From NCBI GenBank assembly GCA_000349905.1, contig KB722775.1:43175-107174 (forward strand): a stretch of 64,000 bases of DNA, given 5' to 3'. The stretch is from Volvariella volvacea V23. Taxonomy: Eukaryota > Basidiomycota > Agaricomycetes > Agaricales > Pluteaceae. Below are positions 23,978 through 47,326 of this stretch, piece after piece (position 1 is the stretch's first letter; each line of letters begins with the position of its first letter). The notes under the pieces are model-generated. The model did not search any database. It saw only the letters and a program-made list of their open reading frames with translations, and had not been told where the DNA came from. A program made the translations under genes and the position numbers.

Positions 23978-24089
23978 TGGGCTGATTTTTCTGTTGCGGT
24001 TAGATTAAAGTTATGTGTAATCAAATAAAATTTGGTTTTATTTGGCTCGCGCTCGAAATCTTTACTCTGCTGCACAATGCATCTTGCAA
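23978..24089. promoter_or_regulatory. Bidirectional TSR2/GRC3 promoter
   Basis: Only 112 bp separates the ATG of TSR2 (- strand, 23977) from that of GRC3 (+ strand, 24090), so both 5' leaders and start sites must lie in this interval or overlap the neighbouring gene. No TATA box is evident, in keeping with housekeeping ribosome-biogenesis genes. Confidence 0.6.
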
Positions 24090-26545
24090 ATGCTCAGCGC
24101 CGTTGCTGCTCGCAAAGCCGCACAGGCTGCTCGACAGAAGCTCGGCCAGGGTGATTCAAGTCCGAAACCGCTACCTCATTCATCGTCTCCAGCATCGCCG
24201 TCTCAGAATGCCGTAACACCAAAGTCAAAACGAAAAGTTGCTCGTACTAGTAGTCGCGCCAGTCCACTTACGAAAAGAAAGAAAAAATCAAAACAAGAGG
24301 AGTCGAAGTTGAAGCGTGCTAGATATTTTGATGAGAAGGATGGCTTAGAGGCACAGGATGAGATGGTTCTAATGCAGTCCGAGGAGGAGGTTGAAGATGC
24401 GGTGGTTCTCAGTTCCGACTCCGAAGACATCCAGGTGCCTGCACCACTTATCATAAAGCAAGGGCGCTCGTACTCCCCGAGTGCTCCTATACACGACTCG
24501 TCCGAAGAAGAAGAGGATGGCATCAACCTACCTACGAACCCGCCCGCCCCACCCCCAGCCGCCACTGCTCCAATCGTCCTATCCACTTTTCGGGCCATAG
24601 AAGGACAAAATGTACTTACTTTGTCGAGTGACAAGATTGGAAGTTTGCTCAACACCCCTGTGTCGCGTCCGGGTATGCTGCTGGCGTTGGCTGAGGGAGA
24701 ATCTGTTACGTTCCTCGGAAACTATTCACTCGCCGTTCTGCNNNNNNNNNNNNNNNNNNNNNNNNNNNNNNNNNNNNNNNNNNNNNNNNNNNNNNNNNNN
24801 NNNNNNNNNNNNNNNNNNNNNNNNNNNNNNNNNNNNNNNNNGAGATTTCATCCAAAGGCCTGCTGCCATTCTTCTAATACTGGAACTTCGCAGTGGGATT
24901 GAGGGTCTAGGGAAAGTTGTCAAGACATTTGACCCCGCGTTTTTTGTCTCGCCCTCTCCGGAATTCGAAAGTATCGGTCTTCAAATGGTAGGCTATTCTT
25001 ATCCACTGCAGTGTATGCAATCTCTCTTACATCATTTCAGCTTACCCACCAGTTAAAAGACACACACCCCTTCGTTTCGCCTGATAGTTGGACGACCGCA
25101 TTGAAGAGTCTTACAGAGTCCTCTGACGCGGGCATCTATCTCGTGAAAGGCGCTAAAAGATCCGGAAAAAGCAGCTTTTCAAGGCTTTTACTCAACCGAC
25201 TTCTGACCCGGTAGGTATCTATCATACGTAGTTGGTCTTGTTCGCTCATTTCCAAAAGTTATAAGCGAGTAGCATTCCTGGAGTGTGATCTTGGTCAGTC
25301 CGAGTTCACGCCTGCTGGCATGGTGGCTTTAAATGTCATCAGCAAGCATATTTTCGGTGCGAAGTGTTGTTTTATGTAGCCTCTCTTCTCTCACCTTGTT
25401 CCCACTGGTCAGGACCACCATTCTCCCATCCATCCCTCCCCAGCTTCGCGCATTATATTGGCTCAACAAGCCCGAAATCCTCCCCTGCACACTACCTAGC
25501 CGCCATTCAAGCACTCATCGAGTCATACCGTCTCGACATACGAAGCCCTCTCCTTGATGATTCCCCGTCATCCAGCGATCTCATCACGGATGTCATCCCG
25601 CTAGTTGTCAACACGATGGGTTGGACTAAAGGACTTGGAGCAGACTTAAGCCGTCAAGTCGAAGAAATAATAGAACCCACTCACATCTTCGAATTCGACG
25701 CACCCCCGGAACCTGGTTGGCCCGCACAATACCGAACACCGTGGGCCTCGTCAGAGAATAACCCTTATTCCACCGGTCCAGCATCAAAGCACTTCACCTT
25801 AACTCCTATTTCGCCTTCCCCGCTTTCCACGAACTATACCCCTATTGATCATCGGTCTATATCTATCCTATCCTATTTCTATGCTCTCTTTCCTCGCTCT
25901 AGTTCTCCCCAAAACTTCTACGAAGATCGTATCGCCTGTCGGTGGAAAACCGATGTACCCTTATGCGCTCGTCATCCATACGAAGTCGACTGGTCTGTTG
26001 CTGTCGACAAGTTTGTCTTGAGCGGTGCTGGGTACGAGGATGTCGTATCGGAGGAGGTTCACCGTGTGCTCAACGGTGCTGTGGTTGGTTTGGTAGAAGT
26101 TAGCCCTAGCGGTCTGGACGACAATTACCTCGTGCAAGCAAATAGCGGTGCAGAGGGAAATTCGGAGAACATCTCAGGGACAAACTCATTGCCAAAAGGG
26201 TTACCATACGTTCAAGGGGCTTTGGTCTCCTCCCCGTCTCTTTCTCAGTGTCGTGGTCTCGCCCTGATACGATCTCTTGATCCTGGGGTTGATTCGAGGA
26301 TGCACCTTCTAACGCCTTTACCTCTAAGATTCCTGGCCGATGCTCGTGTTGTGGTCAAAGGGGAGTTAGAGCTCCCGATATGGGGAATGGTAGATTATAG
26401 GAATGGATATTCCGTTCCTGATACAGGAGGTGCGGCGACCAATGGGAAGGAGAATGTACCGTATTTGCAGTGGGCAAAAGGCGAGGGTGTGGGTTCGCAG
26501 AGGAGAAGAGTAAGAAGGAACTTGATGAGAAGGTCGCAAATGTAG
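24090..26545 (+). CDS. GRC3: Polynucleotide 5'-hydroxyl-kinase GRC3 (NOL9), interrupted by assembly gap
   Basis: Grc3/NOL9 phosphorylates 5'-OH RNA ends and, with Las1, removes ITS2 from pre-rRNA in the nucleolus. Exons: 24090 to the gap; post-gap part to 24987; 25041-25210; 25259-25356; 25413-26545. The N-terminal region is basic then acidic (NLS-like KRKVART, LTKRKKKSK). After the gap come SGIEGLGKVVKTFDPAFF, the P-loop GAKRSGKSS (Walker A), FLECDLGQSEFTP (Walker B-like) and HYLAAIQALIESYR; the C-terminal half matches the Grc3-specific domain (ADARVVVKGELELPIWG). The reading frame differs on the two sides of the N run, so an intron or a non-triplet amount of sequence is missing there. Start is the ATG at 24090; an earlier in-frame non-ATG start was ignored. 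Confidence 0.9.
24742..24841. other. Assembly gap (100 N)
   Basis: Exactly 100 N, a conventional placeholder for a gap of unknown size, inside the GRC3 coding region just after the segment ending GNYSLAVL. The missing part should encode the short stretch of the N-terminal beta domain that precedes the SGIEGLGKV motif. Confidence 0.97.
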
Positions 26546-43499: not shown

Positions 43500-44838
43500 T
43501 TACTTCCCTTTCGAGTTCCCGTCCTTCTCCTGTTGGTTGTTATCCTGCATACTCATCTCAATAGCTCTAGCAATAGCTGCCTCTTCGTCCTCCTCATCCT
43601 CCCCAGCCCCATCCGCAGCTGCCATCTCGACATCCTTGCCCTCCGACATCGCAAGAGCTTGCTGCAACAACGCTGCCTCTTCGTCGTCAACCGCATCTGC
43701 AGGTTCTGTTAGTGCCGCGGTCTTTGCCTGAGTGGATGTAGGAGCGGTTGTCGTGGTTGTCGAGGTAGCAGGAGCGGGGGGAGCACTGGAACTTGCCCCA
43801 GCGGCAGCAGTTGCGGACGATTCACCCCCTGATGCTGCTCGTTCCGCCTCTTCTCTTGCTTGAGCTTCCTGCATGGACAAACGCAGAGCCTTTGAGAGGA
43901 CATTGTCAGCCCAAACTCGTCCCAAGCTGATACAATAAAGTAACATACCATAGCGAGCTCGGGATCGAGGTTAGGATCAAAATCCAGACCGAATTCATTA
44001 GCCTCTGCTCCACCTGAAGAAGCATCTGGTCCTGTACCACCCAACTCTGCAGGGATTGCTCCACTTCTGTCGCTTGCAAGGATGGGTGATGAAATCAATA
44101 CATCAGATAATAGTCGTGATCCAGGCTGCACAATGACTAGGTGCCTAGTAGTCCGATTACTACCAATATAGATAGAAAAGAGATAGAAAAGGACGCAAAC
44201 GCTTACGAATTATCTCCATTGTTAACACTATCCACAAATGCCTTCAAAACCGTCTTCCCCTCCTCCCCTACCGGCTCCTCGATCCCATCTCCAAACGCTA
44301 CCACGTCCACCGCCACGTTATTCTTCTTCAGCTTCTTGCCCAACTTGATCATCGCCTTCTCATCGCCCGATTGCCCCTCGAGCGGCGACCCGACAAAGAC
44401 GATGATGCGCTGACGGAGGGTCTTGTTCTCTCGGTGTTTGAGGGCGAGTTGAGCGACGGCTACTGCGGTGGGGATGTCGATTGACCCACCGATTTTGCGG
44501 GAGGCGGTGTGCACGGCTGAGAGGATGTGTCCGAGGTCTTTGGTGTGTGTCACGAGGACTTCCGGGCTACGTTCATGCGCAATTGGATAGATGAATGCCG
44601 GACAGACAGAGGGGATGAGAAACCTGTTAGCATCGTGCAGGTATGTCTGTACAGTACCCACTCACCCTTTCCCGGCCATGGACATGATCCCAACCGTGCT
44701 CTCCGGGTTGGAATCAATCTTCGTTTGAAACACAACATTGACAGCATCGGCTTGCGCATCAAATCTAGTAGGCTGATAGTCCCCGTTGCGCATATATTCA
44801 GATGTGTCGACTATCATCATCGTTGCTTCCAACGGCAT
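43500..44838 (-). CDS. RPN10: 26S proteasome regulatory subunit RPN10
   Basis: Predicted 372-aa protein in four exons: 44666-44838, 44207-44566, 43949-44144 and 43500-43889. An N-terminal von Willebrand A domain ([51 protein letters not shown]) is followed by [14 protein letters not shown] and [20 protein letters not shown], the first ubiquitin-interacting motif. A second UIM-like stretch ([14 protein letters not shown]) lies near the C-terminus, separated by a Ser/Thr/Ala linker and [18 protein letters not shown]10 is a ubiquitin receptor of the proteasome 19S particle. Length is in the usual range for fungi. It converges with CGI121 (200 bp). Confidence 0.94.
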
Positions 44839-45235: not shown

Positions 45236-45415
45236 TTAGGTAATAATACAATATGATCCAGCAGAATCACGATGGTCATTGTCTTCCTCCTTGTTAACAG
45301 GTACACCCTTATCAGGACTATTTTCCGCTGATGAGCCAGGGGTAGACTCTGAGCTAGTCGCAGCTAACAATATATTCTCAAACGTGATTTGAAGAGTAGT
45401 GTAGATGTGATCCAT
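45236..45415 (-). CDS. Short CaaX-box peptide, candidate mating-pheromone precursor
   Basis: ATG at 45415, stop at 45236, 59 residues. It begins MDHIYTTLQITFENILL, runs through a Ser/Pro/Glu/Asp-rich middle and ends NDHRDSAGSYCIIT. The last four residues Cys-Ile-Ile-Thr fit the CaaX box that directs prenylation and carboxymethylation. Basidiomycete pheromone precursors have this build: 40-70 residues, a short N-terminal MD-hydrophobic part, a charged pair about a dozen residues from the end (here Asp-His-Arg) and a C-terminal CaaX. The gene has its own signals on this strand: TATATAAA at 45552-45559 and a likely 5'UTR intron (45429-45489, GTGCGT...CTAG). No STE3 receptor gene is in the window, and Thr as X is less usual, so other prenylated-peptide roles remain possible. 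Confidence 0.55.
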   Translation of the reverse strand: MDHIYTTLQITFENILLAATSSESTPGSSAENSPDKGVPVNKEEDNDHRDSAGSYCIIT

Positions 45416-45551
45416 TTGAGGATGATTGCTAGCACGAGAATGCGTTAGTCCTATGGTTTACACAGCTCTAGTAAAAGAGATGAACGCACTTGAGGTTCAA
45501 ACTTGCAGACTTTGGGGGCTTGGACTGTCCTGAAAAACCCAAAATCTACCC

Positions 45552-45559
45552 TTTATATA
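45552..45559 (-). promoter_or_regulatory. TATA box of CaaX peptide gene
   Basis: TATATAAA on the minus strand, about 137 bp upstream of the ATG at 45415 with a probable 61-nt 5'UTR intron between. Spacing predicts a transcript start near 45520. Confidence 0.5.
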
Positions 45560-45583
45560 TTGCCCTTTCTTTTGCTTTGACCA

Positions 45584-45601
45584 CCAGTGGCACACCACTG
45601 G
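45584..45601. promoter_or_regulatory. Inverted repeat CCAGTGG-N4-CCACTGG
   Basis: Perfect 7-bp arms with a 4-bp spacer (CACA), about 25 bp upstream of the minus-strand TATA box and between the two divergent TATA elements. Position and symmetry suit a dimeric transcription-factor site; the factor is unknown. Confidence 0.35.
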
Positions 45602-46021: not shown

Positions 46022-47326
46022 CTACGAAGCTAATTCCGCCTCTGGGGTTAGAGAGATATGAGCCAATGAATCCATGTCAGATAGGTAACACTCCAGCCCT
46101 TCACTCTGCAGCAACAAGACCCGTTCACGGATATCCGTCGAATCCCTTTGGTCATGGACTTTGATGCTAGAGAACCCGTCGACCTGTACCCTCCACCGAG
46201 ATTCAATAAACCGCATCAGCTCGTCGTTGGTCACCGCTAATTCGCCCAGCTCCTCTCCTACAACTAATTCCTTAAGAGCCGGCAGGTATCGCGTGGTATT
46301 CTCCGAGGATAATGTCATGTTCGATATAAGCGCAGCGAAGCAACCGCATTTCTGAATTCTGAGTTCCGTAATTGTAGGAATCTGCTGGAGGAATTGCAAG
46401 ATTTCTTCGGGGCGGACTTGGAATTTGAACAATGAGAGGTATTCCGGGGGTGGTGATGCGGCCGCGACAAGTCCCAAGATCCCCGACGCATCCACTATAT
46501 CGGCCAGACCTAGGTCAACCAGCGAAGGAAACTGCACTGCTTGGAATAGCGGCCGAATTCCGTGAACCGGTCGTTCAAATGTGGAGTCGAGCACGCTAAG
46601 GGATGTATGCGAGAATCGCAAACTGGGGTCAACGGGTAGAATGCCGCCCAAGGGCGTAAGGTAAATGGAGAGGCTTTCCAGGTGACGGCATTTAGATAGC
46701 ATGTCCAGAATTGCAGTCGGTCGCATCGAAAATGGGTCCCATGAGCAACGCCAAAGATTTCGAGTGAACTAGGCATTGCTCTGACCAAGTCATCGCGGAG
46801 TGCCTCAATAATGTCTCTGTGGAGGGTGATGTACTTGAGTTTTCGACAACGCGAGAAATCCAGAGATATTTCAGAGATATCTGCGGGCTCGTAAAGATCC
46901 TCTTCAATCTCCAGCTTCAACCCCTCGAGCTGGGGCAATCCGCGTGAAATAACCTCCAGATGCTTGCTAACTCGACCAAATCAACCGTCACAGTAAGATT
47001 TTGGATGCGAGATGCTACATTCTCCAGGATAGTGTGGGTCACGATAGGCATCCCCCTGTCGCTTTGAGAAGCCGATAATATAATGTCGCAGGGTAGGTTA
47101 CGCGATCGTCTAAGCCACTTTTCGATTTTATGAGTGTCGCGGGAAATATTGCGGACGTCTCCATTTATTCTGACAAACGACCAGAGCGCATGAGTGCCTA
47201 ATGTTATGGCCCTCCAGCGCTTGCAGACGAGCCCTAGGGTGATAGGGGCTGCCCAGAAGCCATCTTGGTAGAATAGAAAACTTTTGATATTATTTCTGGC
47301 GGGATGTCCAATATAGGCGATCTCAT
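46022..47326 (-). pseudogene. F-box/LRR-type protein, frameshifted
   Basis: Reading down the minus strand from ATG at 47326 gives an F-box (ILDIPPEIISKVF), then DGFWAAPITLGLVCKRWRAITLGTHALW, then LRR-like segments (LEVISRGLPQLEGLKLEI, CRKLKYITLHRDI, CRHLESLSIYLTPLGG, IPTITELRIQKCG) to a stop at 46022. This is the usual build of the large mushroom F-box families, substrate adaptors for SCF ubiquitin ligases. But the pieces lie in three successive frames: shifts are needed near 47280, 46955 and 46735. Each is equivalent to loss of one base, and no GT-AG intron fits. I read it as a decayed gene; repeated one-base assembly errors are the alternative. Confidence 0.7.

What the first reader, a model, noticed from the sequence alone, without database searches (positions are those of the whole stretch)
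45236..45601. Candidate mating-pheromone precursor with its own promoter
A 59-codon frame ends in Ser-Tyr-Cys-Ile-Ile-Thr-stop, a CaaX box, after an acidic region and a Asp-His-Arg triplet. It has a TATA box, a probable 5'UTR intron and an upstream 7-bp inverted repeat on the correct strand. Short CaaX peptides with this build are the mating pheromones of basidiomycetes and are routinely missed by gene finders. No STE3 receptor is visible in the 64 kb, so this would be an orphan precursor or a non-mating lipopeptide.
Basis: partly seen in the sequence, partly recalled or inferred. Interest (0 to 1): 0.85.

Follow-up and report, generated by a model that had tools for sequence, protein, structure and literature searches.

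The report
Unlinked mushroom pheromone precursor gene
A 59-amino-acid gene in the paddy straw mushroom looks like a real, overlooked precursor of a fat-modified mating pheromone that lies away from the known pheromone receptor genes; such stray pheromone genes are known from a few other mushrooms, so this is a new example of a known kind.

Summary
The minus-strand frame 45236-45415 encodes 59 aa (MDHIYTT...EEDNDHRDSAGSYCIIT) with a CaaX end, a TATA box and a readable 61-nt 5'UTR intron; the inverted repeat is chance-level. Pfam PF08015 (fungal mating-type pheromone) aligns over its full length (E 0.001; 20.5 bits, just under the 22-bit cut-off). 0 of 30 shuffles keeping MD and CIIT, and 0 of 100 other small frames of the window, match it. 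Eight published or database precursors score 37 bits down to no match. Codon usage ranks 2nd of 189 small frames. The host is Volvariella volvacea, probably strain V23-1. All 13 receptor (STE3) matches lie on contigs C24 and C2, none on this 168-kb contig. Papers seen report four receptors and one precursor (Vvphb1), sought only within 5 kb of receptors, so this gene would have been missed. Unlinked pheromone-like precursors are described in Agaricus bisporus and Amanita phalloides. Best reading: a farnesylated pheromone-like signal peptide without receptor linkage in a bipolar mushroom, perhaps a self-ligand for an STE3 receptor. Expression, processing, conservation and receptor are untested. 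New member of a known kind.

The parts
45236..45415 (-). 59-codon frame with stop: pheromone-precursor-like gene
   Evidence: PF08015 E 0.001 over residues 1-58; codon score 2nd of 189 small frames
45239..45250 (-). CaaX box, residues 56-59 (C-I-I-T)
   Evidence: prenylation inferred
45269..45289 (-). residues 43-49 (EEDNDHR): candidate N-terminal processing sites of the mature peptide
   Evidence: charged-pair rule from PMC5100862 and PMC8305134, passages; cleavage inferred
45429..45489 (-). possible 61-nt 5'UTR intron (GTGCGT ... CTAAC ... TAG)
   Evidence: consensus only, no transcript
45553..45559 (-). TATATAA box, 144 nt before the ATG
   Evidence: 3 per strand in the window
45584..45601 (.). 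7-bp inverted repeat CCAGTGG/CCACTGG, judged chance-level
   Evidence: 138 such repeats in the window
44203..44838 (-). downstream neighbour: start of an RPN10-like 26S proteasome subunit gene (two frames)
   Evidence: VWA_2 in both frames; PDB RPN10 chains up to E 1.5e-24
46022..46726 (-). upstream neighbour: 234-aa frame, no Pfam match at E <= 0.001

Best explanation
The frame is a real gene for a short lipopeptide pheromone precursor of the basidiomycete a-factor type, not linked to the receptor (MAT-B) genes and so probably without a mating-type role. Proposed working: the 59-aa precursor is made in the cytosol, farnesylated on C56, trimmed of IIT and carboxymethylated, cut near E43-E44 or D47-H48 to a peptide of about 9-12 residues ending in DSAGSYC, and exported. 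It then acts on one of the STE3-type receptors of the same genome, stimulating the B (pheromone) pathway of its own mycelium in a bipolar, partly self-fertile mushroom. Shown here: the frame, its motifs, the profile match, coding-like codon usage, and STE3 matches only on other contigs. Inferred: expression, splicing, each processing step, the receptor and the self-stimulation. The confidence given is for the gene being a pheromone-type precursor; for self-stimulation see the novel case.
For: PF08015 over the full length at E 0.001, 20.5 bits, above the pheromone-like frame on the receptor contig (17.6 bits) and within the spread of eight published or database precursors (37.2, 32, 27.5, 25.7, 21.8, 21.7, 13.8 bits, none). 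0 of 30 shuffles keeping MD and CIIT match; 0 of 100 other 45-80-aa frames of the window match at E <= 1. Codon score 0.23 bits/codon: 2nd of 189 small frames, 0 of 2000 base shuffles as high, the other five readings all below zero. All 13 STE3 matches are on C24 and C2, none on the 167,870-bp C40; even if C40 and C24 abut, the nearest receptor is about 205 kb away (coordinates). Unlinked pheromone-like precursors are reported in bipolar Agaricus bisporus, three of four with mature peptides resembling the non-mating consensus GGGSGNGAYC (PMC8305134, passages), and in bipolar Amanita phalloides (PMC10598064, passages).
Against: Below Pfam's curated cut-off (20.5 against 22 bits). Residue 4 is Ile where the 13 other sequences aligned have Phe. 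No candidate relative in a database of 5.8 billion proteins, so no evidence of conservation. The strict motif build is expected about 2.6 times per genome by chance. No transcript data. Thr as last residue is less usual for farnesylation than Ala, Ser or Met (recalled). D47-H48 is nearer the end than the usual 10-15 residues.
Confidence: 0.78

Rival explanations
1. A chance open frame in the leader or promoter of the RPN10-like gene that happens to begin with MD and end in CaaX; it makes no functional peptide.
For: About 2.6 frames of the strict build are expected per genome by chance; no relative found; below the Pfam cut-off; the frame ends 398 bp upstream of the RPN10 start.
Against: Full-length profile match absent in 30 of 30 shuffles and in 100 of 100 other frames; codon usage 2nd of 189; TATA box upstream.
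Confidence: 0.13
2. A relic: a former mating pheromone gene moved away from MAT-B when the species became bipolar, still open but no longer expressed or recognised.
For: MAT-B of V. volvacea is reported as no longer mating-type-specific (PMC4938666, sections 15 and 22); Ile at position 4 departs from the usual Phe.
Against: The frame is intact with coding-like codon usage, TATA box and readable intron.
Confidence: 0.06
3. A short prenylated protein with another role, anchored in a membrane and not secreted.
For: CaaX boxes occur on many non-pheromone proteins (general knowledge); the GxYC end with Thr is not diagnostic.
Against: PF08015 is the only Pfam family matched at E <= 10; length, MD start and charged stretch fit a pheromone precursor.
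Confidence: 0.03

Closest known systems
Pheromone-like non-mating-type precursors of Agaricus bisporus, with related ones of Coprinopsis cinerea and Laccaria bicolor (PMC8305134, passages)
   Same: Short (44-54 aa in A. bisporus, 59 here), CaaX end, internal charged motif, not linked to receptors, bipolar host; mature end ...GAYC there against ...GSYC here.
   Different: Four genes in A. bisporus, one found here; those mature peptides are Gly-rich, this one is not; three of theirs have a 3'UTR intron by EST, here a 5'UTR intron is only readable and no 3'UTR intron was found.
Two CaaX pheromone homologues of Amanita phalloides away from its receptor genes (PMC10598064, passages)
   Same: Bipolar species, CaaX end, located away from the receptor genes.
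   Different: Their predictions were compared with transcripts; their sequences are in supplements I could not read, so orthology is untested.
Vvphb1 of Volvariella volvacea (PMC4938666, section 15)
   Same: Same species; short CaaX precursor.
   Different: Vvphb1 lies 719 bp from VvSTE3.1. The 47-aa frame at C24:124551-124694 that fits it has no MD start and no Pfam match; the window gene has both but no receptor nearby.
MAT-B pheromone precursors such as those of Rhizopogon (PMC5473757, passages with part of Table 4)
   Same: MD start, 48-60 aa in the rows seen, ends such as CIIS and CIIA, PF08015 matches of similar strength.
   Different: They lie beside receptors, this one does not; they carry Phe at position 4, this one Ile.

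Membership tests
Basidiomycete lipopeptide pheromone precursor (PF08015 type) | C-terminal CaaX box | tested here: met
   C56-I-I-T-stop
Basidiomycete lipopeptide pheromone precursor (PF08015 type) | Length about 40-100 aa and an MDxF-type start | tested here: inconclusive
   59 aa and MD present; position 4 is Ile, not Phe
Basidiomycete lipopeptide pheromone precursor (PF08015 type) | Charged dipeptide about 10-15 residues before the C-terminus | tested here: met
   E43-E44 is 12-13 residues before C56 (15-16 before the last residue), D47-H48 8-9 before C56 (sequence; rule from PMC5100862, and dipeptide list of PMC8305134, passages)
Basidiomycete lipopeptide pheromone precursor (PF08015 type) | Match to the PF08015 profile | tested here: inconclusive
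   E 0.001, 20.5 bits, full length, curated cut-off 22; 4 of the 8 precursors scored also miss the cut-off (21.8, 21.7, 13.8, none)
Basidiomycete lipopeptide pheromone precursor (PF08015 type) | Farnesylation, methylation and secretion of a mature peptide | not testable with these tools
   needs mass spectrometry or a bioassay
MAT-B (P/R) mating-type pheromone | Close linkage to STE3 receptor genes | tested here: not met
   No STE3 match on C40 (167,870 bp); 7 matches on C24, 6 on C2. Counts are lower bounds; at least about 205 kb from any of them
MAT-B (P/R) mating-type pheromone | Different alleles in mating-compatible strains | not testable with these tools
   Only one strain held; PMC4938666 reports no mating-type-specific variation at MAT-B of this species (section 15)

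The most novel reading that the evidence does not exclude
This unlinked gene supplies a self-ligand for a V. volvacea STE3 receptor, so that homokaryons carry key and lock together and run the B pathway without a partner. This would account for part of the MAT-A-independent fruiting of the species, and by the same route in Amanita phalloides and Agaricus bisporus.
Probability: 0.2. Interest if true: 0.65.

Novelty: new member of a known kind. Interest (0 to 1): 0.42.

Why it matters
V. volvacea is a cultivated mushroom whose life cycle has long been debated; its genome was first reported to lack pheromone precursors, then to hold one (PMC3602538 passages; PMC4938666 section 15). An intact unlinked precursor, plus a further candidate 9.6 kb beyond VvSTE3.1, changes that inventory and gives a concrete ligand to test for self-stimulation in homokaryotic fruiting, a question also open in Amanita phalloides. 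It also shows that searching only 5 kb around receptors can miss such genes.

Tried and rejected
Whole-genome searches with PF08015 and PF12737 (mating homeodomain C-terminus) gave nothing and rang in 0 of 14 control genomes, so they say nothing about absence; PF08015 there missed even the window frame that hmmscan finds.

A protein search with the window peptide found no candidate. The same search with an alignment that adds the C24 frame and Rhizopogon precursors found 13 proteins at E <= 10, four named Rhizopogon vinicolor, one Hygrophoropsis and one Serpula, so the database does hold fungal pheromones; I saw no close relative of the window peptide among them (best identity to it over at least 80% of its length: 32%).

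Promoters: the 400 bp upstream of the window gene and of the C24:136142 gene share 1 eight-letter word on the same strand and 2 on opposite strands (2.45 expected by shuffling for one strand); the window gene and the Vvphb1-like frame share 4, for which no expectation was computed. ACAAAG is absent on either strand of those 400 bp. A 3'UTR intron was not found for the window gene by a consensus pattern. The inverted repeat was dropped as chance-level.

Two further end patterns gave 12 and 3 genome matches (7 and 2 with a true stop), among them no frame with an MD start except the window's own; the match counts of all three patterns are near those of the reversed control patterns (9 against 6, 12 against 10, 3 against 0). 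100 of 187 other small frames, a random draw, were scanned; 87 were not.

Full report
OBSERVATION. The minus strand at 45236-45415 carries an open frame of 59 codons, MDHIYTTLQITFENILLAATSSESTPGSSAENSPDKGVPVNKEEDNDHRDSAGSYCIIT. It lies in the 1.2-kb gap between a 234-aa minus-strand frame that ends at 46022 (no Pfam match) and an RPN10-like proteasome subunit gene that starts at 44838, all on one strand. TATATAA stands 144 nt before the ATG, and a 61-nt 5'UTR intron can be read with GTGCGT, CTAAC and TAG. The 7-bp inverted repeat exists, but the window holds 138 comparable ones, so it carries no weight.

IS IT MORE THAN CHANCE? In simulated DNA of the same trinucleotide make-up, frames of the strict build (MD start, 40-80 aa, C[VIL][VILM]x end, acid/base dipeptide) turn up 0.017 times per 224 kb, and 1 of 60 simulations reached the one observed; the looser build MD + CaaX turns up 0.52 times against two observed, reached by 8 of 60. 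Scaled up, the strict build is expected about 2.6 times per genome, so motifs alone do not prove a gene.

Three further tests go beyond motifs. First, Pfam-A names one family at E <= 10, PF08015 Pheromone, E 0.001, 20.5 bits, residues 1-58 on profile 1-66; the curated cut-off is 22 bits. Thirty shuffles of the interior that keep MD and CIIT gave 0 PF08015 matches, and 100 other frames of 45-80 aa from the window gave 0 at E <= 1. Second, known precursors score alike: of eight, four reach the cut-off (37.2, 32, 27.5, 25.7 bits) and four do not (21.8, 21.7, 13.8, no match). Named Rhizopogon sequences are those at 25.7, 21.8, 21.7 and 13.8; Hygrophoropsis 37.2 and Serpula 32; the 27.5 and the miss are unnamed database proteins (names, one sequence from Table 4). 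Of the mixed set of 17, the window frame and the C24 frame included, 16 match at E <= 10. Third, codon usage, trained on four long frames of the window, is 0.23 bits per codon against a mean of -0.05 (s.d. 0.12) for 188 other small frames, one of which scores as high; 0 of 2000 base shuffles reach it and the other five readings of the same stretch are all below zero.

WHOSE GENOME. A 1113-aa frame of the window is 100% identical over 99% of its length to AX16_003340 of Volvariella volvacea WC 439; the next hit, Pluteus cervinus, is 50% identical. The genome held has 35.39 Mb in 54 contigs, with three STE3 genes on C24 about 68 and 5 kb apart and one on C2. Bao et al. 2013 report for strain V23-1 35.7 Mb in 62 scaffolds and three receptors 72 and 4 kb apart on scaffold 24 (PMC3602538, passages); Chen et al. 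2016 add a fourth on another scaffold (PMC4938666, section 15). The window is therefore most likely from V23-1; this is an inference, and the contig number is not the same as the published scaffold count.

RECEPTORS AND OTHER PRECURSORS. All 13 STE3 matches lie on C24 (7) and C2 (6); none lies on C40, the 167,870-bp contig of the window (the search scores best candidates only). The window gene at C40:88410-88589 is about 79 kb from the nearer contig end and the C24 receptors at least 125 kb from theirs, so even abutting contigs would leave about 205 kb between them. In Flammulina velutipes two subloci lie 304 kb apart on one chromosome (PMC5100862, passages), so loose linkage is not excluded.

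Chen et al. found one precursor, Vvphb1, 47 aa, 719 bp upstream of VvSTE3.1, and looked within 5 kb of receptors (PMC4938666, passages and section 15). The 47-aa frame ending NGTCVIA at C24:124551-124694 fits that description; it has no MD start and no Pfam match. A further candidate lies 9.6 kb beyond the VvSTE3.1-like gene at C24:136142-136315, MDTFFSF...NHERKGQTTFINCTIM, PF08015 17.6 bits, codon score 0.24. In 224 kb of fetched DNA (C40 84 kb, C24 110 kb, C2 30 kb) only this frame and the window's join an MD start to a CaaX end at 30-110 aa. Genome-wide, three DNA patterns for such ends gave 9, 12 and 3 matches, of which 7, 7 and 2 end in a true stop; the window frame, found by two of them, is the only one with an in-frame MD start. 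This is not a full inventory, since other end types, such as that of the C24 candidate, were not scanned for.

HOW IT LIKELY WORKS. By the rules quoted in PMC8305134 and PMC5100862 (passages), C56 would be farnesylated, IIT removed and the Cys methylated, and cleavage at a charged pair would free the mature peptide; E43-E44 is near the usual distance, D47-H48 is closer to the end. PMC4101180 (passages) gives 9-14 aa for mature pheromones. The end DSAGSYC recalls, without being, the non-mating-type consensus GGGSGNGAYC of Coprinopsis cinerea and GGGSGNNAYC of Laccaria bicolor (quoted in PMC8305134). A ligand not linked to a discriminating receptor is unlikely to set mating type, so the likely role is stimulation of a receptor of the same mycelium or a developmental signal, as PMC10598064 (passages) and PMC8305134 (passages) discuss for the bipolar Amanita phalloides and Agaricus bisporus. 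Chen et al. conclude that V. [quoted passage not shown] None of these functional steps is shown here.

AGAINST. The score is under the curated cut-off; residue 4 is Ile where 13 other aligned sequences have Phe; no relative was found; no transcript or second strain could be read. Pheromone precursors are highly divergent and nearly all were absent from gene models in the genomes of PMC5473757 (passages), so the lack of relatives is weak evidence either way.

NOVELTY. Searches of the paper library for orphan, unlinked or non-mating pheromone precursors and for Volvariella pheromones (all hits listed, 20 of 56 listed) and the passages read showed one reported precursor in this species and none away from the receptors; supplements and subscription papers were not seen. 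The kind itself, unlinked pheromone-like precursors in bipolar mushrooms, is in print. I rate it a new member of a known kind.

Noticed in passing
G000:C24:136142-136315 (locus L018:6142-6315, minus strand): 57-aa pheromone-precursor-like frame MDTFFSF...NHERKGQTTFINCTIM, 9.6 kb from the VvSTE3.1-like gene, PF08015 17.6 bits, with a TATA word and a readable 49-nt 3'UTR intron; outside the 5-kb flank searched in PMC4938666.
   Followed up: partly
G000:C24:124551-124694 (locus L017:4551-4694, plus strand): The 47-aa frame that fits the published Vvphb1 lacks an MD start, has no Pfam match and a weaker codon score (0.07) than the two other candidates; the paper reports low expression, so its start may deserve a second look.
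   Followed up: partly
G000:C2:751552-752755 (plus strand): A fourth STE3-type receptor gene in several exons on another contig, in line with the published VvSTE3.4.
   Followed up: no
window, inside the frame 24021-24902: A run of unread bases (X in the translation): a gap or masked stretch in the assembly.
   Followed up: no
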